Below, piece after piece: positions 36,763 through 50,094 of a stretch of DNA of 64,000 nucleotides. The position numbers and the translations under genes were made by a program. Source of the stretch: Gammaproteobacteria bacterium Milos-ODIII6 (GTDB lineage Bacteria; Pseudomonadota; Gammaproteobacteria; Chromatiales; Chromatiaceae); the NCBI GenBank assembly GCA_029228645.1, contig JAPTHR010000014.1, positions 2,668 through 66,667 on the forward strand, in the 5' to 3' direction. Each line of letters begins with the position of its first letter. Position 1 is the stretch's first letter. The notes beneath the pieces were generated by a model. The model was not told the DNA's origin. It ran no database searches and was given only the letters and a program-made list of their open reading frames with translations.

Positions 36763-37350
36763 ATGAAGATGAAGTATTGCAGTTGCTGTGGTGAGCTCAT
36801 CCGGGTCGGTGTGCCGGAGGGCGACAACCGGCCACGCCACATCTGTGACGCCTGCGATACGGTGCACTACCACAACCCCAAGATCGTGACCGGCTGCATT
36901 CCCGCCTGGGAAGACAAGGTTCTGCTCTGCCGGCGTGCGATCGAGCCGCGCTACGGGCTGTGGACGGTGCCGGCCGGCTTCATGGAGAACGGCGAGACCA
37001 CCTACCAGGGCGCGATGCGCGAGACCCTGGAGGAGGCCAACGCACGGGTCGCGGTCGAGGACCTGTACATGACGGTCAACCTGCCGCACATCGACCAGGT
37101 GTACATGCTGTTCCGGGCCAGGCTGCTGGATCTGGATTTCTCACCCGGCGAGGAGAGCCTCGAGGTCGAACTCTTCGGCAAAGAGCAGGTGCCCTGGAAT
37201 CAGTTGGCCTTTCCCACCGTGGCGTTGACGCTGAAGCAGTATTTCGTTGATCGCGACAAGGGTGCCTTCCCGGCGCGTATGGCGGATATCGTGCGCAACC
37301 CTGCCAATCCGCGAGGTTTCGATGTCAATCTGATTGGCGGGGAATGGTGA
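36763..37350 (+). CDS. Zinc-ribbon Nudix hydrolase
   Basis: 195 residues. An N-terminal zinc ribbon (C6xxC9 and C28xxC31) is followed by a Nudix domain with the full box GX5EX7RETLEEAN (about 72-94). The arrangement recalls NudC-like or ADP-ribose pyrophosphatases. It hydrolyses a nucleoside-diphosphate-linked compound, but the substrate cannot be told from sequence. ATG at 36763, with another at 36769. Monocistronic, divergent from ppx, followed by repeats. Confidence 0.88.
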   Translation: MKMKYCSCCGELIRVGVPEGDNRPRHICDACDTVHYHNPKIVTGCIPAWEDKVLLCRRAIEPRYGLWTVPAGFMENGETTYQGAMRETLEEANARVAVEDLYMTVNLPHIDQVYMLFRARLLDLDFSPGEESLEVELFGKEQVPWNQLAFPTVALTLKQYFVDRDKGAFPARMADIVRNPANPRGFDVNLIGGEW

Positions 37351-37397
37351 GGAGCAAGGGATAGCGAGGCCCTGCACGCCAAGGGCAGGGGGCATCC

Positions 37398-37462
37398 ATT
37401 CGCCAGCAAGCTGGCTCCTACGGCTGGTAGCGTCTTTTTGTAGGAGCGGCCTTGGCCGCGAA
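37398..37462. repeat. Pair of opposed REP elements (BIME-like)
   Basis: REP1, 37398-37421 (ATTCGCCAGCAAGCTGGCTC followed by CTAC), and REP2, 37439-37462 (TGTAGGAGCGGCCTTGGCCG followed by CGAA), are in opposite orientation, 17 bases apart. Each contains its own palindrome (CCAGC-AA-GCTGG and GCGGCC-TT-GGCCGC). They match the GTAGGAGC-type REP sequences well known in Pseudomonas and relatives. No RAYT transposase is present nearby. Confidence 0.85.
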
Positions 37463-37505
37463 GGGTAATCCCGCGAATGGTCCCATGGGCAGGTGGCGTA
37501 TAACG

Positions 37506-37571
37506 GGTCGGAGTCAAACCGTTCACATACGATGGTTTCTCCCACCTTCGTGGCACGGTTTGACTTCGACC
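37506..37571. repeat. 66-base inverted repeat upstream of the GSCFA gene
   Basis: 17-base arms, 37506-37522 (GGTCGGAGTCAAACCGT) and 37555-37571, match at 16 of 17 positions around a 32-base loop. The short phrase CCCTCAGCAC follows twice (near 37571 and 37607). It ends 86 bases before the gene start, and could be a small mobile element or a leader hairpin. A similar phrase, GACTTCGACCCCTT, recurs at 53714-53727. Confidence 0.6.
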
Positions 37572-37657
37572 CCTCAGCACCTCGATGTAACTCCGATCCC
37601 TCAGCACAAGTTGGTACGCTGCCCCCCAATTGTCAATGACTCCAGGAGACGGTCTTC

Positions 37658-39358
37658 GTGAAACACCCGTATGAGACACAGCCGGATAAGGCATTTTGGG
37701 CTACCGGCGTAAGGAATAGTCTCGTAGAGCATGGCTCTCTGGATGTTGAGCCTCTGACATCGATTTTGGACAAGGATGATGTTGTCGTTTCCGCGGGCTC
37801 ATGCTTTGCACAGCATGTTGGAAAGGAGCTGTTCCGACGGGGATACGGTTATGCCAAGTCAGCGTTTTCCGGAGAGCGGGTGGAAAGTTTCGGGTTGGGG
37901 AATGTGTACACCATTCGTCAGCTGAAGCAATGGTTGGAATATGGACTTGGGCAGAGGGAATGGGCTGAACAGACGTTACATGTCGAGTCGGGCCGGTACT
38001 ACGATTATCTGTTGCCCCACTTGGGCAAGTTTTCCAGCCTGGATGATATTCAAGACCATCGAAGGGAGGTGGCAGATGAGTTGGTGCGTCAACTGACTTG
38101 CGCCGATGTTTTTGTGTTCACCCTGGGTCTGACAGAGGCCTGGGTGAACTCCGAGGGTGATGTCTACCCCTCTTGCCCCGGTGTCATGGTTGGGTGTTTT
38201 GATGAGTCTTGTCATCAGTTTGTTAACCTGGCATTTTCCGATGTGTTGTCCGACCTGAAGGATGTCGAAGCTCGTATTCTGGAAATTAATCCAAACCTGA
38301 ATCTGGTCTTCACAGTTTCCCCTGTTCCCCTGACAGGTACCGCAACTGACGAACATGTTTTGATTGCAACGAATCATTCCAAGTCTATTCTGCGAGCAGC
38401 CTTGGGTGAATTTCTCAAGGGCGCGCGATCATCGTCCTACTTCCCTTCCTATGAACTGATCACTCACAACACCTTGAATGATTGGCGCTTCCAGGAAAAC
38501 CTGAGGACAGTAAGTACTGAAGGTGTGGCGTTTGTAATGCAGCATGCATTTGGCGATGCCAGGAACAAGGCTTCCGCGAGAGGGCTGGGCAAGGCCGGGG
38601 AAATCGCTGATGAAGCTTTTTGTGAAGAAAGTCTGATCGAAGCGCATCAAAAACTGGGCCAAAAAAATGCGCCTGATTTTGAGTTTGTGTTAGTTGGTGA
38701 TTCTCATATGGAACATCTGGCCAAGGCACTTGAGGGGATGGGGGTTGCTGTTGCCGGCGGTCAAGTGATGAATGGAAGTGGTTTCACGGATGGGAAGTTT
38801 GAATTGTCCGAATCCAGGGTGTTTGTGCCAAAGGAAAGCCCTGAGTCGAAGGAAATCTGGGACGATCTGTTTGAGAAAATTGAGAACCAAGCTGATGGCT
38901 TGAATATCTTAACGAACATTGGATTTCAGACACATAGAACCATTAATGGAATGGCCAATCATTTCCGTGAGTTGGTGGTGACTTTTGATCAGAGTTTTGA
39001 ATACTTCAATGAGAAGTACAGGGATCAAATTGAAATCTGGTCTCGGCTGTCTCGCTATGGTCGCGTATGGCTGATAGAAGACCCTTCTTTTTATGCCTTC
39101 ATATCCAACAAAACCGATGCGTTGATTGTCAGGGATAAGAACTTCCCTGTGTATTGTGCGTGCGTAAGAGAGGCGGCCAAAGCGGTAGGGGTGGAGTATT
39201 TGGACCCGTGTAATGCGGTCATGCAAAAAATCTTTCATGAAACCGGGTCTGTTGTGGGGGCTGTTGGACCTGACGGTTTCCATGGAAGTGAGAAATACTA
39301 CGAGGTGGCCGCACGCGTGTTAACAGATACCATTTACCCGAAAACGGTTGGTGGTTGA
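37658..39358 (+). CDS. Double SGNH protein: GSCFA domain plus second SGNH hydrolase/acyltransferase domain
   Basis: 566 residues from a GTG with AGGAGA at the right distance. The N-terminal GSCFA domain (about 40-300) has VVSAGSCFAQ (GSCFA at 47-51), FTVSPVPL and YFPSYELITHNTLNDWRF. The C-terminal SGNH-like domain (about 338-560) has FVLVGDSHME (GDSH at 347-350) and the terminal DxxH in GPDGFHGS. Both halves keep a plausible nucleophile, so this may be a two-site esterase or acyltransferase acting on carbohydrate. Base composition is visibly AT-richer than the neighbours and its codon use is different, suggesting transfer. It faces the legionaminic-acid cluster tail to tail. Confidence 0.75.
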   Translation: MKHPYETQPDKAFWATGVRNSLVEHGSLDVEPLTSILDKDDVVVSAGSCFAQHVGKELFRRGYGYAKSAFSGERVESFGLGNVYTIRQLKQWLEYGLGQREWAEQTLHVESGRYYDYLLPHLGKFSSLDDIQDHRREVADELVRQLTCADVFVFTLGLTEAWVNSEGDVYPSCPGVMVGCFDESCHQFVNLAFSDVLSDLKDVEARILEINPNLNLVFTVSPVPLTGTATDEHVLIATNHSKSILRAALGEFLKGARSSSYFPSYELITHNTLNDWRFQENLRTVSTEGVAFVMQHAFGDARNKASARGLGKAGEIADEAFCEESLIEAHQKLGQKNAPDFEFVLVGDSHMEHLAKALEGMGVAVAGGQVMNGSGFTDGKFELSESRVFVPKESPESKEIWDDLFEKIENQADGLNILTNIGFQTHRTINGMANHFRELVVTFDQSFEYFNEKYRDQIEIWSRLSRYGRVWLIEDPSFYAFISNKTDALIVRDKNFPVYCACVREAAKAVGVEYLDPCNAVMQKIFHETGSVVGAVGPDGFHGSEKYYEVAARVLTDTIYPKTVGG

Positions 39359-39385
39359 AGTGGCAACAAGCCGCGTGGTCTGTGG

Positions 39386-40438
39386 TCAGCCAAACATCTC
39401 GGCGAATTCCTCGGAGGCCCGCTCGAGGTCCTCGATGCGCCCGATATCCACCCAGTAATCGCGCAGCGGAAAGCTGCCCACTGGCCGCTGCATGTCCATC
39501 AGGCGCTCGAACAGGGTCGGCATGTCGTAGAACTTCTGCCCCGGGACCAGCTGCAGGGCCTCCGGCGACAGCACGTAGATACCGGCATTGACGTAGTGCC
39601 GCTCGACCGGTTTCTCGCGCAGCTGCTCGATGCGGTAACCGTCACCGATGCGCAGCACGCCGTAGGGAATCTGGTGGCTGTATTCGCGCATCGCCATGGT
39701 GGCAACGAAGCCCTGGCGATTGTGAAACTCCAGCAGGCGGACGAAATCGACCTTGGTCAGGAGGTCGCCGTTCATCACGATGATGGGTTGGTCCGGTGTC
39801 TCCGACAACAGGCTGAGCGCGCCCGCGGTGCCGAGACGCCGGTCCTCGGTGATGTAAGCGATCTGTACCCCGAGCTGCGCGCCGTCCCCGAAGTAGTCGC
39901 GAATCATGTGCCCCTTGTAGTTCAGGCACAGGTGGATGTTCTCGAAGCCCTGCGAGGCAAAGTTCTCGATGATCGTCTCGAGGACCGGTTTCGGTCCTAC
40001 CGGCACCAGCGGCTTAGGGATATTTTCGGTCAGCGGGCGCAGGCGCGTGCCAAGGCCCCCTGCCATGATGACCACCGGTGTGCTGCGCGAGGGTTCACTG
40101 GGGATGCGGTACTCGGCCAGCTCGATGACACAGCCGCGCTTGTCCAGGATCGGCAGGTGGCGCAGCGAATGCCGTTGCATGGTGCGCTGCCAGATGCGCT
40201 CGTCCTCTTCCAGCAGGCCGGTCACCGGGTTGGGGTTCATGACCTCGCTGACCGGGGTCTCCAGGGTGCGCCCCTTGAGCAGCGCGCGCCGGATATCCCC
40301 GTCGGTGATGGTGCCGCTGAGGTGGCAGGCGTCTTCCACCACCAGGGCGATCTGCTTGGCGCCCCGGTCGATGATCTCGAGGGCCGCGCGTACGCTTGCC
40401 GCGGGCTCGATGGCAATGTCTTTCCAGCTGTCGGGCAT
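39386..40438 (-). CDS. ptmE: CBS-domain sugar nucleotidyltransferase (PtmE-like)
   Basis: 350 residues. Two CBS motifs (about 1-115) precede a sugar-1-phosphate nucleotidyltransferase domain (about 120-345) with VVIMAGGLGTRLRPLTENIPKPLVPVG, MNGDLLTKVDF and YVNAGIYVLSP. In Campylobacter, PtmE makes GDP-glucosamine for the legionaminic acid route. Here it is the last gene of that cluster, directly abutting the stop codon of the upstream acetyltransferase (TAA then ATG). The guanylyltransferase specificity is inferred from the context. Confidence 0.82.
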   Translation of the reverse strand: MPDSWKDIAIEPAASVRAALEIIDRGAKQIALVVEDACHLSGTITDGDIRRALLKGRTLETPVSEVMNPNPVTGLLEEDERIWQRTMQRHSLRHLPILDKRGCVIELAEYRIPSEPSRSTPVVIMAGGLGTRLRPLTENIPKPLVPVGPKPVLETIIENFASQGFENIHLCLNYKGHMIRDYFGDGAQLGVQIAYITEDRRLGTAGALSLLSETPDQPIIVMNGDLLTKVDFVRLLEFHNRQGFVATMAMREYSHQIPYGVLRIGDGYRIEQLREKPVERHYVNAGIYVLSPEALQLVPGQKFYDMPTLFERLMDMQRPVGSFPLRDYWVDIGRIEDLERASEEFAEMFG

Positions 40439-41080
40439 TTAATTGGCCAGGTTGCGTTTAATCTCGGCCGGGACGCCGGCTACCAGCGTCAACGGTTTGA
40501 CATTTTCGATGACTACCGCTCCTGCAGCAATAATCACGCCATTTCCGATCTCAATCCCCTGTATCACCACCGCGCCTGCTCCGATATGGGCGTTCTCTCC
40601 AACCCGGCACCCTCCGCAAAGGACCGCCCCGCTGGCGACGTGCACGTGGTCATCGATGACACAGTCATGCTCGATCAGCGCACGGCTGTTGACGATCACG
40701 TTGTCCCCCAGGCGGACGCCGCTGTTGACCGTAGCGCCCGGCAGGAACTGGCAGCCGGTGCCCTGGTGCAGACGTTTCGACACAACCGCTGCCGGGTGCC
40801 GAACCGCCAGAAACCGGTATCCCAGGGCGCTGTAGCGCTCGAACAGGCCACGTCGCAGGCTGTTGTGACCCACCGAGCCCACGCCGTTCACCAGGCGCAG
40901 TTCGTTCGCGGGGAATTCCCGCAGGCAGCTGTCCGGACCGAGGTAGGGGATGCCAGGCAGCAGTTCGCCTTCATCACCCGGCGCGCTGTAGCCGACCACC
41001 ATCGCGCCCTGCTCGAGCAGGCAGTCCGCGAGTACGCGGGCGTGACCACCACCGCCGAGGATCACGATGCGTGAAGTCAT
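40439..41080 (-). CDS. Sugar O/N-acetyltransferase (NeuD/PglD/LegH-like)
   Basis: 213 residues. An N-terminal Rossmann-like part (RIVILGGGGHARVLADCL) leads into a left-handed beta-helix of hexapeptide repeats (GVRLGDNVIVNSRALIEHDCVIDDHVHVASGAVLCGG...). The catalytic His of PglD-like enzymes may be the H in LIEHDC. In legionaminic acid synthesis LegH acetylates the UDP-4-amino sugar; NeuD O-acetylates sialic acid. Position inside the cluster supports LegH. The ATG overlaps the legI stop by 4 bases. Confidence 0.85.
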   Translation of the reverse strand: MTSRIVILGGGGHARVLADCLLEQGAMVVGYSAPGDEGELLPGIPYLGPDSCLREFPANELRLVNGVGSVGHNSLRRGLFERYSALGYRFLAVRHPAAVVSKRLHQGTGCQFLPGATVNSGVRLGDNVIVNSRALIEHDCVIDDHVHVASGAVLCGGCRVGENAHIGAGAVVIQGIEIGNGVIIAAGAVVIENVKPLTLVAGVPAEIKRNLAN

Positions 41081-42153
41081 TCGATGACCTCGTCGGCCGC
41101 GTAGACACGCCTGGCGGGCGTGCCCAGCAGGTCCCAGAAATCCAGCGGCGAGCGGCCGCTGGCCGGACGCTTGCTGCCGAGATTGTCTGTGCTGAAGGGC
41201 TCTCCCCTGGCGATGGGTCGCAGCGCTACCAGGCTCTTGCGCGCAACCGCGCGATTGCCCTGCTCGACCGGCGACATCGCCTTGGTCGGGCTGCCGAGCG
41301 CGATTTCGACGCGCCTTACCGCATTCACCAGCTCCGTCAGTTCATCGGGTTCCAGCGAGGCGACATGATCCGGGCCCGGCAGGGTGCGATCCAGGGTGAA
41401 GTGTTTTTCCAGAATCGTGGCCCCGCGCGCGGCGGCCATCACCGCGACATCGATGCCGAGGGTGTGATCGGAGTAGCCGACCCGCAGGCCGAAGGCGTCG
41501 CGCAGGGTATCCATGGCGCGCAGATTGACCTGCTCCAGCGGGCAGGGGTACTCGGTGGTGCAATGCAGCAGGTGGACCCGCTGGCGCAACAGCTCCCAGG
41601 CCGATGGATCATCCAGCACTGCGCTGAAATCGGATCGCCCCGTTGGCGGGTTGGCATGCAGGTAGCCGAATGCCAGCACCCCCAGTGCCTCGCGGATCTC
41701 GCCCAGGTTCGCCATGCCGGTCGACAGGATCAGCTCGCGCCCCGCGTTGGCGATCTGCAGCAGCAGCGGGGCATTGGTCAGTTCGCCCGAACCGAGTTTG
41801 ATGCGGGGCAGGTGGAGCTCCTGTATCAGGAATTCGGCGCTGGCCGGGTCGAAGGGCGAGGACATGAAGTCTATGCCGCGCTCGCCACAGCGCGCCACCA
41901 GCGCGTGGTGATCCCCGGGTGCGAGCACCAGCCGCTGCAGCATGGCCAGCTGGGAGCCGGAGTCGCCCTCGTTGCGTATCTGGTAGTCCGCCTGTGGGGC
42001 GCTCTGCGTGACCAGCGCGGCCGCGTCGAAGGTCTGGAACTTGACCGCATCCGCGCCAGCGGCAGCGGCAGCATCCACCAGGGCCAGGGCCCGCTCGAGG
42101 TTGCCGTTATGGTTCACGCCGGCCTCGGCGATGACATAGATGGCGTCGCTCAT
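41077..42153 (-). CDS. legI: N-acetylneuraminate/legionaminate synthase
   Basis: 358 residues. NeuB-type TIM barrel with YVIAEAGVNHNGNLERAL, KFQTFDAAALVT, FDPASAEFL, KLGSGELTNAPLL, CTTEYPCP, GYSDHTLGIDVAVMA and LEKHFTLD, and a C-terminal SAF (antifreeze-like) domain (about 290-350, with ARGEPFSTDNL). It condenses phosphoenolpyruvate with a 6-carbon amino sugar to give a nonulosonic acid. Start 42153 (MSDAIYV) is chosen for the 4-base overlap with the legF stop and GGGAGA at correct distance; an ATG two codons earlier is less well placed. Confidence 0.92.
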   Translation of the reverse strand: MSDAIYVIAEAGVNHNGNLERALALVDAAAAAGADAVKFQTFDAAALVTQSAPQADYQIRNEGDSGSQLAMLQRLVLAPGDHHALVARCGERGIDFMSSPFDPASAEFLIQELHLPRIKLGSGELTNAPLLLQIANAGRELILSTGMANLGEIREALGVLAFGYLHANPPTGRSDFSAVLDDPSAWELLRQRVHLLHCTTEYPCPLEQVNLRAMDTLRDAFGLRVGYSDHTLGIDVAVMAAARGATILEKHFTLDRTLPGPDHVASLEPDELTELVNAVRRVEIALGSPTKAMSPVEQGNRAVARKSLVALRPIARGEPFSTDNLGSKRPASGRSPLDFWDLLGTPARRVYAADEVIE

Positions 42154-42866
42154 GCCCATGTCTCCCGGGGGCGATCGAGCATCAGTTCCGCGAAGCGGAA
42201 ATCCAGTTCCGTATCGATATCGATCGATCGCTCCCGCGGCATGACGTAAGCGTAGCTGTTGTCATCCATTTCGAGGCTTCCGGTGCGCATCAGGCGCTCC
42301 ACATTGAACAGGTAAATGGCGCCGTTCAGACGGTAGCTGACGGGCAGGTCCTGTGAGCGGGTGCCGCGAATCCCGGGGCGGAAGAAGTCCTGCATGGACA
42401 GATCCAGCGGGAGCGTATTGCTCCATTCCGGAGGGTGATCGGTTGGGCAGACACTGATAACGGCGTCCGCCTGCTTTTCCAGCAACAGCCCGATGGCGCC
42501 ATCGATGTCCGCGCTGGTTCGCAGGGGCGAGGTGGGTTGCAGGAGCGCCACGTAATCATAGGGTTGACCATGAGCGATCAGGTGATTCAAGGCGTGCAGC
42601 AATACATCCAGCGTCGTTGCTGTATCCGTGGCGAACTTCGCAGGCCTTGAAAAGGGGACGCTTGCACCCGCCGCAAGACTCGCCTCGCCAATCTCCGTGT
42701 CGTCGGTAGAGACAATGACCTGGTCGATCCCGCGTGTCGCCAGCGCGGAATCGATGGTCCAGGAGATGAGTGGACGGCCAGCGAGCGACAGCAGGTTCTT
42801 TCCCGGGAGGCGCTTGCTACCACCCCGTGCCGGGACCAGGCCGAGTATTCGAGGCGACTCGGCCAT
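42150..42866 (-). CDS. legF: CMP-legionaminate (nonulosonate) cytidylyltransferase
   Basis: 238 residues. The CTP-binding signature LVPARGGSKRLPGKNLLSLAGRPLI is at about 8-32, then VIVSTDDTEIGEA, LLQPTSPLRTSADID and the C-terminal DIDTELDFRFAELML. It activates the nonulosonic acid as its CMP ester. The ATG at 42866 has AGGGAGG upstream; the open frame continues 54 codons further with unrelated sequence. It starts a second transcription block after a 373-base gap downstream of legG. Confidence 0.9.
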   Translation of the reverse strand: MAESPRILGLVPARGGSKRLPGKNLLSLAGRPLISWTIDSALATRGIDQVIVSTDDTEIGEASLAAGASVPFSRPAKFATDTATTLDVLLHALNHLIAHGQPYDYVALLQPTSPLRTSADIDGAIGLLLEKQADAVISVCPTDHPPEWSNTLPLDLSMQDFFRPGIRGTRSQDLPVSYRLNGAIYLFNVERLMRTGSLEMDDNSYAYVMPRERSIDIDTELDFRFAELMLDRPRETWA

Positions 42867-43239
42867 GTCAGTACTGCCTCCCTTGGCGAAGCCTTTGAGG
42901 AAGACGGTTCGGCGTAAGCGGTTCGATATATCGGCCCTTTGCCGTCGCCTTGAGGTTTGCGCTGCGTCGCATTTTTTTCCGGGTGCAAGAACGCTTCTGT
43001 CGGGATAGAGAAGCAATGCCTGTGCCATTGAGCGTCGATAAGCGCAAAAGGTATTTAAGCTCTTGTTATGAATGAATATTCAGGCAGGGTGCCAGCTCCG
43101 CGGAGGGGCTGGGGGCTTGCAAAGCGTGGCCGTTGGCGGCGGTGTTGTGCGCAAGGCGTCAAATAATTTACGCGTTAAATTCCTTTGCGCTTATCCACCA
43201 TCAACTCTATTGAGCAGGCTTGGGCAGTGGAGTCTTCAC
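42867..43239. other. 373-base gap inside the legionaminic acid cluster
   Basis: No gene is supported on either strand. The sequence includes an AT-richer block near 43150-43210 (ATAATTTACGCGTTAAATTCC) in an otherwise GC-rich context. All other joints of the cluster are overlaps, so this is either a promoter region for legF-legI-legH-ptmE or the scar of a lost gene. No clear promoter or terminator was seen. Confidence 0.5.
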
Positions 43240-44409
43240 TCAGGTGCAGGGTTGTCGATCGACAAAACGTTTTTGAATCAGTTCGTCCGGTCTCCATGGG
43301 CCTGCCAATACCGAGATGATGCGCTCGGTGGCCGTTCCATCGCCGTAGGGGTTTTTGACGCCGCTACAGTCCGTTCCAAAGGCATTGATTATGGCGGCTT
43401 CTATGGCCTCCGTCTCTACAGGACAATCGATTACGGATACGGCCTTGAGGCGGCCCTTCTGACGGTCACCGATATTGACCGTCGGAGTATGCAGGCTGGG
43501 TGCTTCATACAATCCGCTGGAACTGTTGCCCACGACCGCATCGGATAGTGCGAGCAGTGAGTAGTAAGCCTGTTGCCCGAGTGACAGATGCTGTACCGCA
43601 TTGGTATGACTGGAAACGAAATCCGCCACCCTGCGGTTGAGGCTGTCGCCCTTGGGATCGGCATTGGACCCGGTAAAGACCAGCCCGGTATCCGGCCCTA
43701 AGTTATGCAGAGCAGCCAGAAGTGCCTCGAGCTGGGCTTCCGCCTCCTCCCGTTGCAGTGTCGCGGGGTGAAAAGTGATCGCCAGGTTGCGCTCACGCAG
43801 CTGCATGCTCAAACGGTGTTCCAACTCCGGGGTAGTGAGGCGGGGGGTGGCAAGCAGCAGGTCTATCCCGGGGCTGCCGCTAAGGTGAATCCTGTCATCG
43901 GCCTCACCCAGCTGGCGCAAACGCTGTGCCGCCTGTTCGTTGGTGGCGAAGTGCAGGTGCGACATCTTGGTGATCGCGTGCCGGATGGCATCATCGAAGG
44001 CACCCTCGGTCACATCGCCGCCCGCGATATGAGCGACCGGGATGCAAGCGATCAGTGCGGCCTGTACCACTCCCAGGATCTCATAGCGGTCGCCCAATAC
44101 CAGCAACAGGTCGGGGGTCAGCCGATCCAACTGCTCGGCCATACCGCCGACCACTGCCGCCAGCGCCTGACTGATATCGATGGCATCGTCACCGCCGAGA
44201 TTCACCGGTATTTTCGCATCGACGGAAAAGCCATCCTCTGTGATGGTGTCGATCGTATGTCCGTAATGGGATTCAAGGTGTGAACCAGTAGCGACCAGAC
44301 ACAAATCCAGGTCGGGATGCTGCTGAATGGCGTGCAGCACTGGCAGCAGCAATCCGTAATCCGCCCTGGAACCTGTGACCGCACAGATACGGCGTTTTGC
44401 ACGGCTCAT
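43240..44409 (-). CDS. legG: UDP-N-acetylglucosamine 2-epimerase, hydrolysing (NeuC/LegG)
   Basis: 389 residues. ICAVTGSRADYGLLLPVL at the N-terminus, ATGSHL, LLVLGDRYEI, AHIAGGDVTEGAFDDAIRHAITKMSHLHF, GSPGIDLL and VGNSSSGLYEAPSLHTPTVNIGDRQKGR are NeuC/NnaA/LegG signatures. It removes UDP and epimerises C2 to give the mannosamine-type precursor. ATG 44409 overlaps the legC stop by 4 bases. Confidence 0.92.
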   Translation of the reverse strand: MSRAKRRICAVTGSRADYGLLLPVLHAIQQHPDLDLCLVATGSHLESHYGHTIDTITEDGFSVDAKIPVNLGGDDAIDISQALAAVVGGMAEQLDRLTPDLLLVLGDRYEILGVVQAALIACIPVAHIAGGDVTEGAFDDAIRHAITKMSHLHFATNEQAAQRLRQLGEADDRIHLSGSPGIDLLLATPRLTTPELEHRLSMQLRERNLAITFHPATLQREEAEAQLEALLAALHNLGPDTGLVFTGSNADPKGDSLNRRVADFVSSHTNAVQHLSLGQQAYYSLLALSDAVVGNSSSGLYEAPSLHTPTVNIGDRQKGRLKAVSVIDCPVETEAIEAAIINAFGTDCSGVKNPYGDGTATERIISVLAGPWRPDELIQKRFVDRQPCT

Positions 44410-45623
44410 GATTGGCCTGGCTTCCCGCCCAGCTGTGCCGAACTCGGCAGGCAGATTCCGCGGCTGAACAGATCGTCGCACACGACAAGCGCTGCACGGG
44501 GGCAGTCCTGGTACATCGGAAGATGGTGCAATGGGGTCCAGAACGGCCTCAGCTGAAGACCTTCCGCATGCGCGGCCTGCAGTAGCTCGTCCCGTTGCAA
44601 GGGGGCATCGAGCAGCAGCAGGTTGAGCCAGTGGTTACTCTCGCGTCCTGCCGCCTCCCTAAACAGTCGGGCACCGGACATGTCTGCGAAAGTCTCCCGA
44701 TAGTGTTGCGCCAGTACCTGTTTCGCTGCGATCAGGGCGGGGAGTTGCTCCATCTGGGCCACGCCCAGCGCGGCGTTGAGGTTGGGCATGCGGTAGTTGA
44801 AGCCGATTTCGTCGTGTTCGAACGCCCATGGGTGGGCTTGTTTGGCAGTGGTTGTCAGGTGCCTGGCATGGCGCGCCAGTGCTTCATTCCGGGTAAGGAT
44901 CGCGCCGCCACCCCCGGTGGTGATGATCTTGTTGCCATTGAAGCTCAGGGCGCTGAGATCGCCCCAGGCGCCGGCATGCCGGCCGTCCAGGTGGCTGCCC
45001 AGGGCCTCCGCCGCGTCTTCGATCAATACCAGGCGGTAGCGTTCCGCCAGTGCTTTCAGACGCGGCATATCGGCAATATGCCCGAGCACATGCACGACCA
45101 CCAGGGCGCGTATGGGTCGACCGCTGATCCGGTTATGGCAGACGCCGTCGCGCAGTTCGGCGGTTTGCGCAAGATGTGCTGCAAGCGCCGCAGGATCGAC
45201 ACCCAGCGTCTCATGCTCACAGTCGATAAAATGCGGAACGGCACCCATGGCGGCCACCGGGTTGGCGGTGCCGACAAAGGTCAATGCCGGTAGCAGTACC
45301 TCGTCGCCGGCTTCAACCCCGGCCAGCAACAAACAGGTATGCAGGGCCGCAGTGCCGTTGACCGTTGCCACGGCATGCGGAACGCCGGTGTATTCGCTCA
45401 GCGCCGCCTCGAATCGGTCCACATAAGCACCGACGGAAGATACCCAGCCGGAGTCGAGACAGTCCCTGACCCGTTCCCATGCGTTGGCCTCGAAGCGGGG
45501 CTCGTGCAGCGGTATGGGACGTTCTTCGGGCAGGAGCGAACGCAGGCGTTCCAGTATCGTCGTGATCAATAGGTCCGGTCTGGGACCGGCAACGCTGGTG
45601 AACTCAGATGTTGTAGATGCCAT
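44406..45623 (-). CDS. legC: PLP aminotransferase of the DegT/DnrJ/EryC1 family (LegC-like)
   Basis: 405 residues. VNGTAALHTCLLLAGVEAGDEV, the PLP-anchoring Asp in EDAAEALGS, the Schiff-base Lys in LSFNGNKIITTGGGGAI and FNYRMPNLNAALG are typical. It would aminate C4 of the UDP-4-keto-6-deoxy sugar made by LegB. It carries an N-terminal extension of about 30 residues before the family core and overlaps the end of legB by 20 bases. A role in the nonulosonate route is inferred from its neighbours. Confidence 0.9.
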   Translation of the reverse strand: MASTTSEFTSVAGPRPDLLITTILERLRSLLPEERPIPLHEPRFEANAWERVRDCLDSGWVSSVGAYVDRFEAALSEYTGVPHAVATVNGTAALHTCLLLAGVEAGDEVLLPALTFVGTANPVAAMGAVPHFIDCEHETLGVDPAALAAHLAQTAELRDGVCHNRISGRPIRALVVVHVLGHIADMPRLKALAERYRLVLIEDAAEALGSHLDGRHAGAWGDLSALSFNGNKIITTGGGGAILTRNEALARHARHLTTTAKQAHPWAFEHDEIGFNYRMPNLNAALGVAQMEQLPALIAAKQVLAQHYRETFADMSGARLFREAAGRESNHWLNLLLLDAPLQRDELLQAAHAEGLQLRPFWTPLHHLPMYQDCPRAALVVCDDLFSRGICLPSSAQLGGKPGQS

Positions 45624-46599
45624 GCTTGTAGCGCGCCAGGTTGGCTGGGTCGGTGAACCACGCGGCGGTTTCCGCCAGAGCGCGTTTGAAGCCTTCTTCC
45701 TGGCCGTACTCCGGTCGCCAATTCAGAAGTTCCCGTGCTTTGCGGTTGTCCGCCCAGAGTCTTTCCACCTCGCTTTTTTCCGGTCGAAGGCGCTGCTCAT
45801 CGGTTGCGATGGTGATATCGGCGCCCATCACCTCGGCGATCAGTTTCACCGTGTCGCCAATACTGATTTCGTAGTTGCTGCCCAGGTTGATCTCTTCGCC
45901 CAGCACCCGCTCGGATTGCATCATCGCGATAAAGCCGTTGACTGTGTCTCTCACGTAGTTGAAGTCGCGGGTCGGGTGCAGGGCGCCGAGTTTGAGTTCC
46001 CTGGCACCGTTGGCGATCTGGGTGATCACGGTGGGGATCACCGCACGTGCCGACTGGCGTGGGCCGAAGGTGTTGAAGGGTCTCGCTATGGTCACCGGGG
46101 TTTCGAAGGAGCGGTGGAAAGACAGTGCAATCTGGTCTGCCCCGATCTTGGTGGCGGAGTAGGGCGACTGCCCCTGCAGCGGATGCTTCTCGTCGATGGG
46201 CACGTACTGCGCGGTGCCATACACCTCGCTGGTCGAGGTATGCACCACCTTGCCCACGCCCAGGTCGCGCGCTGCCTGTACCACGTTGAGCGTGCCGCGC
46301 ACATTGGTGTCAACGTAGGCATCGGGTGAGTGATAGGAGTAGGGAATGCCGATCAGGGCGGCCAGGTGAAGTACGGTGTCGCAACCCTGCATTGCCGTGC
46401 GCACGCCATGGGGGTCGCGCACGTCCCCGGCAAATACATCGAGTTCCTGTTTGATGTCCGATGGCGACTCGTCCAGCCAGCCCCAATGGCCGAAGCTGTT
46501 GTAGTAGACGAAGGCGCGCACGTCATGCCCGCGGCGCACCAGTTCCTCGGTGAGATGGGAACCGATAAAACCGTCCGCGCCAGTGACGAGGATCTTCAT
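45604..46599 (-). CDS. legB: NAD-dependent 4,6-dehydratase (LegB-like)
   Basis: 331 residues. Extended SDR: NAD motif VTGADGFIGSHLTEELV at the N-terminus, the catalytic STS(E)VYGTA with YSATKIGADQ (YxxxK) and a sugar-binding C-terminal lobe. It removes water from UDP- or GDP-GlcNAc to give the 4-keto-6-deoxy sugar, the first committed step of legionaminic acid synthesis. The ATG overlaps the stop of the Maf gene by 4 bases. Confidence 0.92.
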   Translation of the reverse strand: MKILVTGADGFIGSHLTEELVRRGHDVRAFVYYNSFGHWGWLDESPSDIKQELDVFAGDVRDPHGVRTAMQGCDTVLHLAALIGIPYSYHSPDAYVDTNVRGTLNVVQAARDLGVGKVVHTSTSEVYGTAQYVPIDEKHPLQGQSPYSATKIGADQIALSFHRSFETPVTIARPFNTFGPRQSARAVIPTVITQIANGARELKLGALHPTRDFNYVRDTVNGFIAMMQSERVLGEEINLGSNYEISIGDTVKLIAEVMGADITIATDEQRLRPEKSEVERLWADNRKARELLNWRPEYGQEEGFKRALAETAAWFTDPANLARYKHGIYNI

Positions 46600-49124
46600 G
46601 CGGGGCTGTGCGCCTTGTCGAGTGAATCGAGCATCATGCGGGCGGCTGGGTTGTCCGGTGACAGGGTCAGCACGTGATTATAGGACTCCCGGGCGGCCTG
46701 CAGGGCGCCTGCCTCCTGCAACAGTCGGCCGAGTTTCATCATGCTCGCGGTATCCGTGGGCGCCTTGGCCAGATAGTCGGTATATACGTCGACCGCCTCC
46801 TGGATTCTGCCGGCCATGCGCAAGGCTTCGGCAAGTTGGGGCGCATAGACCGGAGACAGGCCGGCCAATACATGCAGGCTGAGCACAGCGTTGTCGATGT
46901 CGCGTGCCTGCACATTGAGATAGCTGATGCGGCGCAGCGCGTCCTCGACGCGCGGGTCGAGTTGCTCGCCTGGCGAGCTCTCCAGCCTTTCACTGGCGCG
47001 GTCCAGAATGATCTGGTAGCTGGCCATCGCCTCTTGCGGTTGCCCATCCAGCTCCGCGAGGTAGCCACAGGCAAGTGCCGAGAGTTCCCGTGCTTCGTTG
47101 CTTGCCTGGCTGTAAAGGGCCTCGGCGAGCCGGTTCAACTCGACGGTGTTGCCCTGGCGAAACAGGAGCTGCAATTTGCTCCGGACGGGGGCGAGCGTGT
47201 GTGTATTCCGCAGGCCCTTGGCATGTCTTGTCTCCAGCTGCGACAGTGTGTCCTGCAGTTCTCTCTGCATTTCCTCGAAGGCCGCACGCAGCGGGGCTTG
47301 TGCATGCGCCAGAATTTCCGGGTGGCGCTCTGCGAAAAGCACCACGCGTCCAGGGGTACGGTCTTTATCCCATTGCTTCAGCAGGAGTTCGAGGTCCGGC
47401 CGCTGCTTGAGTTCCTCCAGACGGGCCGATACCCGACCCTGGCAAGCCGACACGATCTGTTGGCACTGTTCCACGGCATCCAGGTAGACCTGGTAGTAGT
47501 CACGGCCCCAGGTGTAGATTTCCTCGTCGCTCCATTCGTGATCGGGATCGGGGCGCAGCAGTCGGATGAAGCCTTCGACGGCGAACTTCTTGAGCAGCGT
47601 GGTGATCTTGCCGAATTCGCTGTCCAGGCGGCGTTCGATCCGATCCATGCGCTTCTTGTACTTGAAGTCCGCCGGTTTGCCGGCTTTTCCGAAGAGATGC
47701 TCGTTGCAGGCCAGCGCCTCCCCGGCGAGTTTGCGTACCTGGTTGAGCTGGTTGCGCGCCCAGGCGAGTTCCTTGCGCGCAATTTTCAGTATTTCGAGCT
47801 GTCGTCCCGGGTGCGCCTCGAGAATTCGTCTGATGCGGTCCGGGTCGTGCCCATCTTCATCCGCGACCACGCGTTCCAGCGGCAGGTATTCCACGGATTC
47901 GATACGCGCGGCATCCGTTGCCGGGTTTATGATTCGGCAGCCGCTCCCCGCGGCGGCCCTGGCTTGCCCCGCCAGGATATCGACCGCCTGCGCAAATGCC
48001 GGGCTGGTATCCGCCAGCCGGCCACCATTGGTTTCCACCTGGTTCCCGACCGTGCCAAGGTTGGGGCCGATGTCACGCTCGCTGCTGGCACTCGCATGCG
48101 TATGCCCCTGTGCGTTGAAGCAGAGATCGACGCCACCGAGGATGACGCGCGAGAAGCCCATCTCGACAGCCACGGCGATAGCGAGGTTGGTGACTGTCGG
48201 GCCGATGCGAACGATATTTTTACTGTTCGAGGTCGTGGGCCAGGGGAAGCGGTCGCCACAGTAGACCGATGATCCCGGCCATTGGCCCAGCAGTAGCGGC
48301 GATACGTGATCGTTGCAAACCAGCAACGGCCGGTTTCGGAATTTCAGGCATTCCTTGCTGACGTCGAAGCTCACCGCATGCGGGTCGATAGAGACCACGA
48401 TGTCGGGTTCGAGCCGGCTCTCCAGCAGACGCCGCGCGATGCGCGAGACAGCAATGACGGTGAGATGCTCGCGGTGTTGTTCGACCCAGGGGAGGATATC
48501 GTCCAGCGAGGGACCGCCGCCCAGGACCACCGCCGTGGCCCCGGCGAAACTGTCCTTCAGCAGTGCAGCCGGGAGCAGATTATCCGCGACATTCTCCAAC
48601 TGGCGGCGGAGAAAGGCATGGTTTCCAAGCTGCAGCTGGATGCCGCGCTCGTACTCCGAGATTTCCACCAGCATGTGTGATTCGAGGATACGGTAGTCGG
48701 ACAGGTGAGCGTCGCGCGCCCCCAGCGAGGTGACCAGGCGAATCCCTCCCAGGTAGGCGTAGTCGCTGAAGCGGTACGACTCGATCAGGTCTACCCATGC
48801 CACTGCGGTGGTCAGGCCGAAGTTCGACGTCTCCAGCATCGGGCCGCATCGTTGCTTTACCGACGGGATCAGCTCCTCGAGCTCGACGAAGACGTAGCGC
48901 GAACCCGGGCCCTGTGTGCGCTTGGCGATCCAATGCGGCAAGAGGCCGGAATCGGTCCCAAGAATGATGAAAAGTGTGTTCGGCTGTTCGAAAAGAGAGC
49001 CGAACTGGCGCTCGAACAGCACCTCCGCACCGACCGCGTCGAAGGTGCTTCGATTGACGTCGTACAGGATTTCGTCGCCGAACCGGTTACGGATAAAGCT
49101 CGGAGAGGATGTTTGCGCACTCAT
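46596..49124 (-). CDS. Maf-type motility accessory factor with C-terminal TPR region
   Basis: 842 residues. The central MAF/DUF115 (MptE-like) domain (about 190-390) has the nucleotide-sugar loop AVVLGGGPSLDDILPWV, DIVVSIDPH and VILGGVDLCFNAQG. A helical middle region (about 430-640) and four or so TPR-like repeats (about 660-835) follow. Maf proteins move CMP-legionaminate or CMP-pseudaminate onto flagellin Ser/Thr. It sits between the flagellin gene and legB, in the same direction, which supports this. The long TPR tail is unusual and may hold the flagellin substrate. Confidence 0.88.
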   Translation of the reverse strand: MSAQTSSPSFIRNRFGDEILYDVNRSTFDAVGAEVLFERQFGSLFEQPNTLFIILGTDSGLLPHWIAKRTQGPGSRYVFVELEELIPSVKQRCGPMLETSNFGLTTAVAWVDLIESYRFSDYAYLGGIRLVTSLGARDAHLSDYRILESHMLVEISEYERGIQLQLGNHAFLRRQLENVADNLLPAALLKDSFAGATAVVLGGGPSLDDILPWVEQHREHLTVIAVSRIARRLLESRLEPDIVVSIDPHAVSFDVSKECLKFRNRPLLVCNDHVSPLLLGQWPGSSVYCGDRFPWPTTSNSKNIVRIGPTVTNLAIAVAVEMGFSRVILGGVDLCFNAQGHTHASASSERDIGPNLGTVGNQVETNGGRLADTSPAFAQAVDILAGQARAAAGSGCRIINPATDAARIESVEYLPLERVVADEDGHDPDRIRRILEAHPGRQLEILKIARKELAWARNQLNQVRKLAGEALACNEHLFGKAGKPADFKYKKRMDRIERRLDSEFGKITTLLKKFAVEGFIRLLRPDPDHEWSDEEIYTWGRDYYQVYLDAVEQCQQIVSACQGRVSARLEELKQRPDLELLLKQWDKDRTPGRVVLFAERHPEILAHAQAPLRAAFEEMQRELQDTLSQLETRHAKGLRNTHTLAPVRSKLQLLFRQGNTVELNRLAEALYSQASNEARELSALACGYLAELDGQPQEAMASYQIILDRASERLESSPGEQLDPRVEDALRRISYLNVQARDIDNAVLSLHVLAGLSPVYAPQLAEALRMAGRIQEAVDVYTDYLAKAPTDTASMMKLGRLLQEAGALQAARESYNHVLTLSPDNPAARMMLDSLDKAHSPA

Positions 49125-49266: not shown

Positions 49267-50094
49267 TCAGCCCAGCAGCTTGAGCACGTTCTGCGGCATC
49301 TGATTGGCCTGCGCGAGCATTGCTGTACCCGCCTGCTGCAGAATCTGGTAACGCGTCAGGTCGGCGGTCTCGCGGGCAAAATCCGCATCCATGATGCGCG
49401 AGCGGGCAGCGCTCTGGTTTTCCACGATGTTGGCGTTATTGCGTACCGTGGACTCCAGTCGATTCTGTATGGCGCCGAAGTCGGCTCGCAGTGTGGATAT
49501 CTTGTCCAGGGCAGCGTCGATAGCGCCGACCATGTAGGAGGCGCTTGCCTTGGTCGAGATGGCGCCGCCAATCGCACTGGCAAGGCCCGAGGCGCCTGCC
49601 ACGTCCACGGTGGCTACATCGATCTGGTTGTTGGCATCCGCTTCGAAGCCGATCTGCAGGGTAATGTTTGCGGCTGCGCCGATGATCTTGACCCCGTTGA
49701 ATTCGGTGGAGTCGGTGTTGCGGGTGATCTCGGTGCCGAGCGCCTGGTACTCGTCATCCAGGGAGCTGCGGTCAGCCGCGCTGACCGTGCCGTTGATTGC
49801 CTGCACGGCCAGCTCGCGCATGCGCTGCAGGGCGTTGGAAATCTCGGCCATCGCGCCTTCGGCCGTCTGCATCATCGAAATACCGTCGTTGGCATTGCGA
49901 TTGGCCTGCTCGAGGCCGCGGATCTGCGCGGTGAAGCGCTCAGAGATCGCGAGGCCGGCCGCGTCGTCCTTGGCGCGATTGATGCGCAGGCCCGAGGAGA
50001 GGCGTTCCAGGGAAGTCTGCATTCCGCCCTGAGACATGTTGAGTGAGCGCTGAGTGTTCAGCGACATCAGGTTGGTATTGATGATTTGTGGCAT
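49267..50094 (-). CDS. fliC: Flagellin
   Basis: 275 residues. N-terminal D0/D1 (INTNLMSLNTQRSLNMSQ, LSSGLRINRAKDDAAGLAISERFTAQIRGL) and C-terminal D1/D0 (ENQSAARSRIMDADFARETADLTRYQILQQAGTAMLAQANQMPQNVLKLL) are joined by a short middle part, with no outer D2/D3 domain. It polymerises into the flagellar filament. Many surface-side Ser/Thr are potential glycosylation sites for the Maf protein. It is 95 bases downstream of fliW, in the same orientation. A paralogue of equal length is at 50980. Confidence 0.95.
   Translation of the reverse strand: MPQIINTNLMSLNTQRSLNMSQGGMQTSLERLSSGLRINRAKDDAAGLAISERFTAQIRGLEQANRNANDGISMMQTAEGAMAEISNALQRMRELAVQAINGTVSAADRSSLDDEYQALGTEITRNTDSTEFNGVKIIGAAANITLQIGFEADANNQIDVATVDVAGASGLASAIGGAISTKASASYMVGAIDAALDKISTLRADFGAIQNRLESTVRNNANIVENQSAARSRIMDADFARETADLTRYQILQQAGTAMLAQANQMPQNVLKLLG

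What the first reader, a model, noticed from the sequence alone, without database searches (positions are those of the whole stretch)
37658..39358. Low-GC double-SGNH (GSCFA plus GDSH...DxxH) protein beside the nonulosonic acid cluster
Two SGNH-type domains in one chain is not a common architecture. The gene is AT-richer than everything around it, has inverted and REP repeats upstream, and abuts a complete sugar pathway feeding flagellin glycosylation. A role in acylating or de-acylating the glycan is a reasonable hypothesis.
Basis: partly seen in the sequence, partly recalled or inferred. Interest (0 to 1): 0.62.

Follow-up and report, generated by a model that had tools for sequence, protein, structure and literature searches.

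The report
Probable one-chain GSCFA-SGNH acyltransferase
A foreign-looking bacterial gene encodes, in one chain, two protein halves that other bacteria usually make as two neighbouring genes and that probably work together to put acetyl (or similar) groups on small molecules or sugars; this pairing suggests a job for a protein family whose role was unknown.

Summary
ORF 37658-39358 (566 aa, 49% GC in a 62% GC window) has an N-terminal GSCFA domain (E 5e-46) and a C-terminal half that Pfam misses but whose AlphaFold model is an SGNH fold (Z up to 12.8).

It is best read as two subunits fused. Its GSCFA subfamily ("PipG-like") lacks the SGNH block-V His in 72 of 72 scorable domains, and an SGNH, WcbI or alpha/beta-hydrolase gene is adjacent or fused in 68 of 73. 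Ten of ten scorable other GSCFA domains keep the His; none of 11 has an SGNH or WcbI neighbour. The published split pair, PipF+PipG, is needed for a terminal O-acetylation; the residues essential there correspond to Ser349, His542 and Cys49 here.

The tie to the legionaminate/flagellin cluster is weak: the gene is absent from the genus's 7 other genomes, 4 of which have LegB, and NeuB-type genes lie near GSCFA in 1 of 22 larger loci. The acceptor is unknown.

By-product: WcbI, which needs an unidentified partner, sits beside or fused to GSCFA in 14 of 73 cases.

The parts
37658..39358 (+). 566-aa GSCFA-SGNH fusion protein (whole ORF with stop)
   Evidence: full-length 46% identical homologue in a Rhizobiaceae MAG, L002
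37784..38545 (+). N-terminal GSCFA domain, residues 43-296 (PipG-like subfamily)
   Evidence: Pfam PF08885 E 5.4e-46
37796..37816 (+). GSCFAQH motif, residues 47-53; C49 corresponds by motif to the essential Cys47 of PipG
   Evidence: PipG mutants in PMC12828459 (passages)
38498..38509 (+). N281-T284: block V of the GSCFA domain, catalytic His replaced by Thr
38612..39355 (+). C-terminal SGNH half, residues 319-566 (PipF-like)
38696..38707 (+). GDSH, residues 347-350: predicted nucleophile S349
39272..39283 (+). DGFH, residues 539-542: predicted D539/H542
37391..37484 (.). REP-type repeat upstream
   Evidence: 145 of 146 non-self matches of the queried stretch in the own genome fall here
37505..37572 (.). 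inverted repeat, 18-nt arms, upstream of the gene
   Evidence: one other similar stretch on contig C9
36763..37350 (+). Nudix hydrolase gene; left border of the insertion
   Evidence: next to the PtmE-like gene in G003, G007, G006
39386..40438 (-). PtmE-like CBS + nucleotidyltransferase; last gene of the leg operon, right border of the insertion
   Evidence: the name PtmE is recalled
40439..41080 (-). NeuD-type acetyltransferase
   Evidence: TIGR03570 over cut-off
41077..42159 (-). NeuB-type nonulosonate synthase
   Evidence: TIGR03569 over cut-off
42150..43028 (-). cytidylyltransferase, presumably for CMP-nonulosonate
   Evidence: PF02348; PseF TIGR03584 below cut-off
43240..44481 (-). NeuC-type UDP-sugar 2-epimerase
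   Evidence: TIGR03568 over cut-off
44406..45623 (-). LegC aminotransferase
   Evidence: TIGR04181 over cut-off
45604..46599 (-). LegB dehydratase
   Evidence: TIGR04180 over cut-off
46596..49124 (-). Maf-type glycosyltransferase (MptE-like, TPR)
   Evidence: PF01973; the name Maf is recalled
49267..50094 (-). flagellin 1
   Evidence: PF00669/PF00700
50902..51807 (+). flagellin 2
   Evidence: PF00669/PF00700

Best explanation
The gene encodes a soluble, probably cytoplasmic O-acyltransferase (most likely acetyl-CoA dependent) in which two subunits, usually separate and encoded side by side, are fused. The C-terminal SGNH half supplies the catalytic Ser349-(Asp539)-His542. The N-terminal PipG-like GSCFA half has lost its own block-V His, keeps Cys49, and acts as the obligatory partner: it binds or presents acceptor or donor, perhaps with a transient acyl on Cys49. 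The gene was acquired horizontally into the junction between a Nudix gene and the legionaminate/flagellin operon. Shown here: two-domain anatomy, SGNH-like fold of the C-half, His loss, near-universal pairing, recurrent fusion, insertion into a site that is empty in three relatives. Inferred: transferase rather than hydrolase chemistry, acetyl-CoA as donor, cytoplasmic location, role of Cys49, acceptor.
For: (1) Split homologue with genetics: in P. entomophila, deleting pipD, pipF or pipG leaves the non-O-acetylated product; PipF Ser18 and His211 and PipG Cys47 are important; the authors infer a PipF-PipG catalytic complex (PMC12828459, abstract and passages). (2) The window N-half groups with GSCFA proteins of Streptomyces loci that are detoxin-type by gene content (L023, L024, L039: NRPS and TauD; L029 unannotated) in a clade with local support 0.98. 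The C-half aligns end to end with the neighbours of those genes, with 16 invariant residues including GDSH and D..H (7 rows). (3) A profile of the two fused C-halves picks such partner genes as its five best non-self hits. (4) A partner profile built without any fused protein scores the window at E 2.7e-4 and L085 at 1.7e-7. (5) Pairing: 68 of 73 PipG-like GSCFA ORFs have a partner adjacent or fused, against 0 of 11 others for SGNH/WcbI; block-V His absent in 54+18 of 72 scorable, kept in 7+3 of 10. (6) Fusion recurs: window/L002, L085 and L122 lie in separate places of one FastTree tree, as do WcbI-GSCFA fusions. (7) The C-half model resembles PatB, OatA and a Salmonella LPS acetyltransferase domain (Z 12.1, 11.1, 11.0).
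Against: No biochemistry on this protein. The top structural rows are esterases as well as transferases, so the fold does not decide the reaction; Foldseek also lists FabG-type dehydrogenases from rank 10 on, with query TM-scores of 0.32-0.48 over the 50 rows shown. The hold-out score of the window is the sum of two weak pieces (domain E 0.93 and 0.18), the same profile fails on L002 (E 0.14), and hhalign aligns the fused C-halves to the partners over only 34 columns. The Asp is less conserved than Ser and His: 10 of 11 rows, and not among the nearly invariant columns. In PipF/PipG the Asp208 and PipG His51 variants were made but are not named as important. PipFG also needs PipD; no PipD-like protein was found in the own genome, a search without a positive control. 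In pseudovibriamide synthesis PppH/I/J are each needed for the larger products, but the expected unacylated analogue was not seen (PMC11796379, passages), so that case does not show acylation, and I did not see whether one of the three is a GSCFA protein. The His-loss/partner correlation concerns essentially one clade. PipF/PipG sequences themselves could not be fetched. 5 of 73 PipG-like ORFs have no adjacent partner (2 at contig ends).
Confidence: 0.7

Rival explanations
1. O-acetyl esterase: the C-half removes acyl groups (for example from an O-acetylated nonulosonate) and the GSCFA half is a binding module.
For: Foldseek's best row is a sialic acid esterase (7pzh, E 1.6e-4) and many top rows are GDSL esterases.
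Against: The one clear genetic precedent for the pair is an acetylation. The partner family WcbI binds CoA. Pairing with a His-less GSCFA subunit is unexpected for a simple esterase.
Confidence: 0.14
2. The acceptor is the legionaminic acid / flagellin glycan next door.
For: 27 nt from the leg operon, in a genome with Maf-type protein and flagellins. O-acetylated nonulosonate on flagellin is reported for Campylobacter (PMC3068675, abstract start in the listing).
Against: Not in the operon (convergent). Absent from the 4 other genus members with LegB. NeuB-type gene near GSCFA in 1 of 22 loci. Relatives sit in NRPS clusters and other glycan loci.
Confidence: 0.28
3. The gene is cargo that modifies something unrelated (another polysaccharide or a small molecule) and its position is accidental (also compatible with the best explanation).
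For: Low GC, repeats on one side, insertion into a convergent junction that carries a different 3.6-kb insert in G005.
Against: No acceptor pathway was identified for it; the own genome was not surveyed for one.
Confidence: 0.4
4. Decaying or non-functional insertion.
For: AT-rich, one species of the 8 sampled in the genus.
Against: Intact 566-codon frame, 46% identity over the whole length to a Rhizobiaceae protein with the key residues kept.
Confidence: 0.05

Closest known systems
PipG + PipF (with PipD), terminal O-acetylation in pseudotetraivprolide biosynthesis, P. entomophila (PMC12828459, abstract and passages)
   Same: GSCFA protein plus an adjacent SGNH-type protein; the Cys of GSCFA and the Ser/His of the SGNH partner that matter there have counterparts here
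   Different: Here one chain, no NRPS cluster seen at the locus, no PipD found, acceptor unknown
GSCFA protein plus 'putative protein' in detoxin/rimosamide/miramide clusters (MirD/MirC and homologues; PMC9503745, legend and table passages)
   Same: The Streptomyces plasmid loci of this gene content (L023, L024, L039) hold the closest split relatives in tree and alignment
   Different: Two overlapping genes in NRPS clusters; MirC/MirD themselves were not fetched
WcbI (PF18588), capsule biosynthesis protein that binds CoA and lacks activity alone (PMC4104973, abstract and passages)
   Same: Takes the same place beside GSCFA: 14 of 73 PipG-like ORFs, 5 of them in one open frame
   Different: The window C-half is not WcbI: no PF18588 match; Ser rather than Cys in the nucleophile motif
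PatB / OatA / AT3-SGNH (OafB-type) O-acetyltransferases
   Same: SGNH fold of the catalytic part (Z 11.0-12.1)
   Different: Those act outside the cytoplasm with a membrane partner that supplies acetyl (recalled); here no AT3 match and, by eye, no membrane stretch at the N-terminus

Membership tests
GSCFA family (PF08885) | match to the Pfam model above its cut-off | tested here: met
   157.7 bits against cut-off 25, residues 43-296
GSCFA family (PF08885) | GSCFA motif | tested here: met
   residues 47-51
SGNH superfamily, N-half as an active enzyme | block-V D..H | tested here: not met
   N281-T284 in place of D..H; His present in 10 of 10 scorable non-PipG-like domains
SGNH superfamily, C-half | alpha/beta/alpha SGNH fold | tested here: met
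   AlphaFold pLDDT 78.2; VIA-align Z 12.8 to 10.4 over the 50 rows listed, mostly GDSL/SGNH esterases or O-acetyltransferases by title or recall
SGNH superfamily, C-half | block I GDS and block V D..H | tested here: met
   S349, D539, H542; in the wider set Ser and His are invariant, Asp is not
SGNH superfamily, C-half | blocks II/III Gly and Asn | tested here: inconclusive
   G422 and H426 are conserved in the fused and detoxin-type partners; no canonical GxND recognised
PipF/PipG O-acetylation pair | GSCFA subunit with important Cys (PipG Cys47) | tested here: met
   C49 in GSCFAQH, same spacing to His as PipG Cys47/His51; PipG itself not available
PipF/PipG O-acetylation pair | SGNH subunit with Ser18/His211 (Asp208 proposed) | tested here: met
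   S349/D539/H542 align with the Streptomyces partners; PipF itself not available
PipF/PipG O-acetylation pair | third component PipD | tested here: inconclusive
   no match in the own genome with a presumed Streptomyces counterpart (L023 10695-11459), no positive control
PipF/PipG O-acetylation pair | O-acetylation activity | not testable with these tools
   needs biochemistry
WcbI (PF18588) | Pfam match | tested here: not met
   C-half gives no PF18588 hit at E <= 10
AT3-SGNH acyltransferases | acyltransferase-3 membrane domain | tested here: not met
   only GSCFA matched in the whole protein at E <= 0.01

The most novel reading that the evidence does not exclude
PipG-like GSCFA proteins are the common subunit of a broad class of soluble CoA-dependent O-acyltransferases with interchangeable catalytic subunits (SGNH/PipF-type, WcbI, alpha/beta-hydrolase). 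The GSCFA subunit gave up its own His, its Cys takes part in acyl handling, and the window protein is a self-contained one-chain member. It follows that the missing partner of WcbI proteins is a GSCFA protein.
Probability: 0.4. Interest if true: 0.8.

Novelty: new variant of a known kind. Interest (0 to 1): 0.64.

Why it matters
A 2022 review lists GSCFA as an SGNH family with no known activity and no structure (PMC9487903, passages), and sequence searches of solved structures gave nothing below E 0.1. WcbI has been known since 2013 to bind CoA but to lack activity alone and to need an unidentified partner (PMC4104973, abstract and passages). Recurrent fusion and adjacency tie WcbI and GSCFA together and give one-chain proteins that can be purified and assayed without reconstituting a complex. 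In the held open-licence library no paper contains both 'WcbI' and 'GSCFA': 52 hold at least one term, the listing ranks papers with more terms first, and its top rows hold only one.

Tried and rejected
Leg-specific enzyme: tested by presence in the genus, empty sites and loci; the link is not conserved. Phage origin: no match in annotated phages, none with the whole protein in viral contigs; GSCFA relatives do occur in viral contigs when an alignment is used (22 loci). Homology between the two halves (internal duplication): profile comparison of the GSCFA and partner alignments finds nothing, so a simple duplication is not supported. tRNA-linked insertion: no tRNA in the window. Promoter and terminator scan: no more sites than in shuffles. 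The full-length AlphaFold model from 4 sequences was unusable (pLDDT 50.5). A 25-row alignment for a second full-length model misplaced the partner rows on the N-half, so only the C-half was modelled; the N-half was never modelled well. WcbI was not seen among the listed structural rows of the C-half, which excludes nothing. The insert in G005 was checked as a possible replacement glycan gene: by eye two PhnD-like binding proteins and a GGDEF/EAL protein, no GSCFA.

Changed on re-checking: the pseudovibriamide case is weaker than I first wrote, so it moved to the evidence against and the main confidence went from 0.72 to 0.70, the esterase rival from 0.13 to 0.14.

Full report
WHAT IS THERE. 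The ORF 37658-39358 (+) is intact, 566 codons, GTG start. Residues 43-296 match Pfam GSCFA at E 5.4e-46; this is the only GSCFA match in the own genome. The rest has no Pfam or NCBIfam match above cut-off. The gene is 49.0% GC (GC3 0.52) against 62.3% for the window; none of 624 windows of that size is as low. Upstream lie a REP-type element (145 of 146 further matches of the queried stretch in the genome) and an inverted repeat with one other similar stretch. To the right, 27 nt away and convergent, is a nonulosonate operon (PtmE-like, NeuD, NeuB, cytidylyltransferase, NeuC, LegC, LegB), then a Maf-type protein and flagellins.

INSERTION. LegB is in 5 of 8 genomes of the genus (E 1e-60) and the Nudix gene in 7 of 8 (E 1e-30), but the fusion gene only in the own genome (1 of 8). 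In G003, G007 and G006 the PtmE-like gene and the Nudix gene are convergent neighbours 27-164 nt apart by tblastn ends (G006 at a contig end); in G002 the two lie on different contigs; in the own genome about 2.0 kb lie between them; G005 has a different 3.6-kb insert there. So, within the 8 genomes held, the gene is a single-species acquisition at a variable junction.

SPREAD. With the whole protein: family 7 of 194 genomes and class 4 of 369 (E 1e-10), phylum 24 of 398 (E 1e-30), each count including the own genome. Nearly all match the N-half only. Full-length relatives: L002 (Rhizobiaceae MAG, 46%), L085 (C-half 24%, E 3e-13 in a two-sequence comparison), and from viral contigs L122. Plasmids: 39 records, none covering 80% of the query; the C-half alone finds nothing there. 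Annotated phages: none.

THE PARTNER RULE. Next to single-domain GSCFA genes I saw a 220-300 aa gene, often overlapping, annotated 'hypothetical' or once 'WcbI family' (7 plasmid loci). Nine such neighbours and the two fused C-halves (window, L002) align at GDSH and D..H: Ser and His in 11 of 11 rows, Asp in 10 of 11. With the detoxin-type and Leisingera partners the alignment runs end to end with 16 invariant residues (7 rows). A profile of the two fused C-halves ranks such partners (L029, L039, L024, L026, L023; E 2e-5 to 0.024) above every other non-self ORF of the set. In the reverse, hold-out test on 2559 ORFs, the window scores E 2.7e-4 (two weak pieces, domain E 0.93 and 0.18), L085 1.7e-7 and L002 only 0.14.

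Over all loci gathered (2966 ORFs) I then typed neighbours with three profiles: SGNH/PipF-type, WcbI, alpha/beta-hydrolase. Of 86 GSCFA ORFs, the two pieces of broken locus L019 were set aside, leaving 73 PipG-like (BLAST E < 1e-38 to the window N-half, the window included) and 11 others. 'Adjacent' means overlapping or within 200 nt, either strand, stop-to-stop frames. PipG-like: SGNH in 51 (4 in the same frame: window, L002, L085, L122; for the first two the profile contains the proteins themselves), WcbI in 14 (4 co-directional, 5 divergent, 5 in the same frame), alpha/beta-hydrolase-like only in 3, none in 5. The five: L004 and L126 end at contig ends; L016 has about 283 extra N-terminal residues; L018 has an SGNH gene 1.2 kb away; L089 lies beside an NRPS gene and its 20-kb context held no partner. 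Others: none of 11 has SGNH or WcbI; one has a weak alpha/beta-hydrolase match. Pfam confirms WcbI and GSCFA in the same frame in L117, L121, L125, L127; L035 is by my profile only. Caveats: the profiles were seeded with such neighbours, some loci are near-duplicates (L113/L114, L003/L004), the loci are related by descent, and one open frame is not proof of one protein.

LOSS OF THE HIS. At block V the PipG-like domains read mostly [DN]-x-R-[TSNEARD], the others D-x-x-H. First set: 54 of 54 scorable PipG-like lack His and 7 of 7 others have it (L036 and L019 gapped; one L019 piece without the motif dropped). Viral set: 18 of 18 and 3 of 3 (L133 without the motif dropped). This is one clade-level change, so it is a strong pattern and not many independent events.

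TREE. One FastTree tree of 82 GSCFA domains (L019, L114 and the motif-less L133 left out), rooted on one non-PipG-like sequence because these did not form a single group: window and L002 are sisters (local support 1.0), inside a 21-member clade (0.98) that also holds the Streptomyces detoxin-type GSCFA proteins. L085 and L122 branch elsewhere, so SGNH fusion arose about three times. The WcbI-associated proteins form one group of 15 (0.75), including L126 whose contig ends before a neighbour could be seen.

STRUCTURE. The C-half model (pLDDT 78.2, pTM 0.78) is SGNH-like: Foldseek best E 1.6e-4 (sialic acid esterase), PatB 4e-4, with FabG-type dehydrogenases from rank 10 on; VIA-align Z 12.8 (GDSL acetylesterase), PatB 12.1, OatA 11.1, Salmonella LPS acetyltransferase domain 11.0, rmsd 3.1-5.0 A. 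Query TM-scores are moderate (0.32-0.48 over the 50 Foldseek rows shown) and model residues 55-69 are poorly predicted. A profile of the partner set against solved sequences gave only chance-level hits, to LAE5 (5jd3, E 0.28), which also appears in the structural lists, and to a ribosomal protein (E 0.31). The GSCFA half was not modelled reliably.

FUNCTION. PMC12828459 (abstract and passages): deleting pipD, pipF or pipG leaves the non-O-acetylated product; pipG deletion was not complemented by pipG alone but by pipFG; PipF Ser18 and His211 and PipG Cys47 matter, and the role of Cys47 was called unexpected; Asp208, His51 and Thr238 variants were made but are not named as important in the passages seen. 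PMC11796379 (passages): pppH, pppI or pppJ mutants make only pseudovibriamide A and not B and C; the authors suggest a complex, but the unacylated analogue expected for an acylation role was not seen. I infer from G-S-C versus G-D-S that the GSCFA Cys stands where the SGNH Ser stands; one multiple alignment placed them so, profile comparison did not confirm it. PMC4104973 (abstract and passages): WcbI binds CoA, with Cys14 and His201 near its thiol or acetyl end, shows no activity alone, and the authors propose a partner presenting the acceptor. Together these favour an acyltransferase made of a catalytic subunit plus a GSCFA subunit, here in one chain.

ACCEPTOR. Unknown. Relatives lie beside NRPS genes (L023, L024, L039) or glycosyltransferase and nucleotide-sugar genes (for example). 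Only L016 of 22 loci of 10 kb or more (2 of them around non-PipG-like genes) has a NeuB-type gene. The leg operon is a plausible target by position only.

VERDICT. As a protein it is a new, one-chain variant of the PipF/PipG pair. The wider point, that PipG-like GSCFA proteins are partners of several hydrolase-fold subunits including WcbI, is what I did not find in print in the held open-licence library.

Noticed in passing
L117, L121, L125, L127, L120, L123 (viral contigs): WcbI and GSCFA are in one frame or adjacent in viral (probably proviral) contigs, by eye near tail-fibre-like and endolysin-like genes in some (L121, L123, L125): candidate prophage genes that acylate host surface glycans.
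   Followed up: partly
window 37350-39386 against G003, G005, G006, G007: The Nudix/PtmE-like junction at the end of the leg operon is a variable spot: empty in three relatives, two PhnD-like genes plus a GGDEF/EAL gene (by eye) in G005.
   Followed up: partly
L019 (G267:C15): A PipG-like GSCFA gene and its SGNH partner lie in several pieces with in-frame stops; a decaying copy or an assembly problem.
   Followed up: no
L030, L034, L036: The gene before GSCFA is alpha/beta-hydrolase-like (GxSxGG by eye; PF12697 E 1e-4, below cut-off, for L036 only), a possible third partner type.
   Followed up: partly
L016 9388-11328: 647-aa frame with about 283 unassigned residues before the GSCFA domain, starting with another GSC motif; possibly a reverse-order fusion.
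   Followed up: no
L089 / L134 (G889): PipG-like GSCFA gene beside a very large NRPS frame with no SGNH, WcbI or hydrolase partner found within 20 kb.
   Followed up: partly
window 42500-43999: A second, milder GC dip (about 57%) inside the leg operon around the cytidylyltransferase/NeuC boundary; the order of these genes and the identity of NeuC vary among relatives.
   Followed up: no
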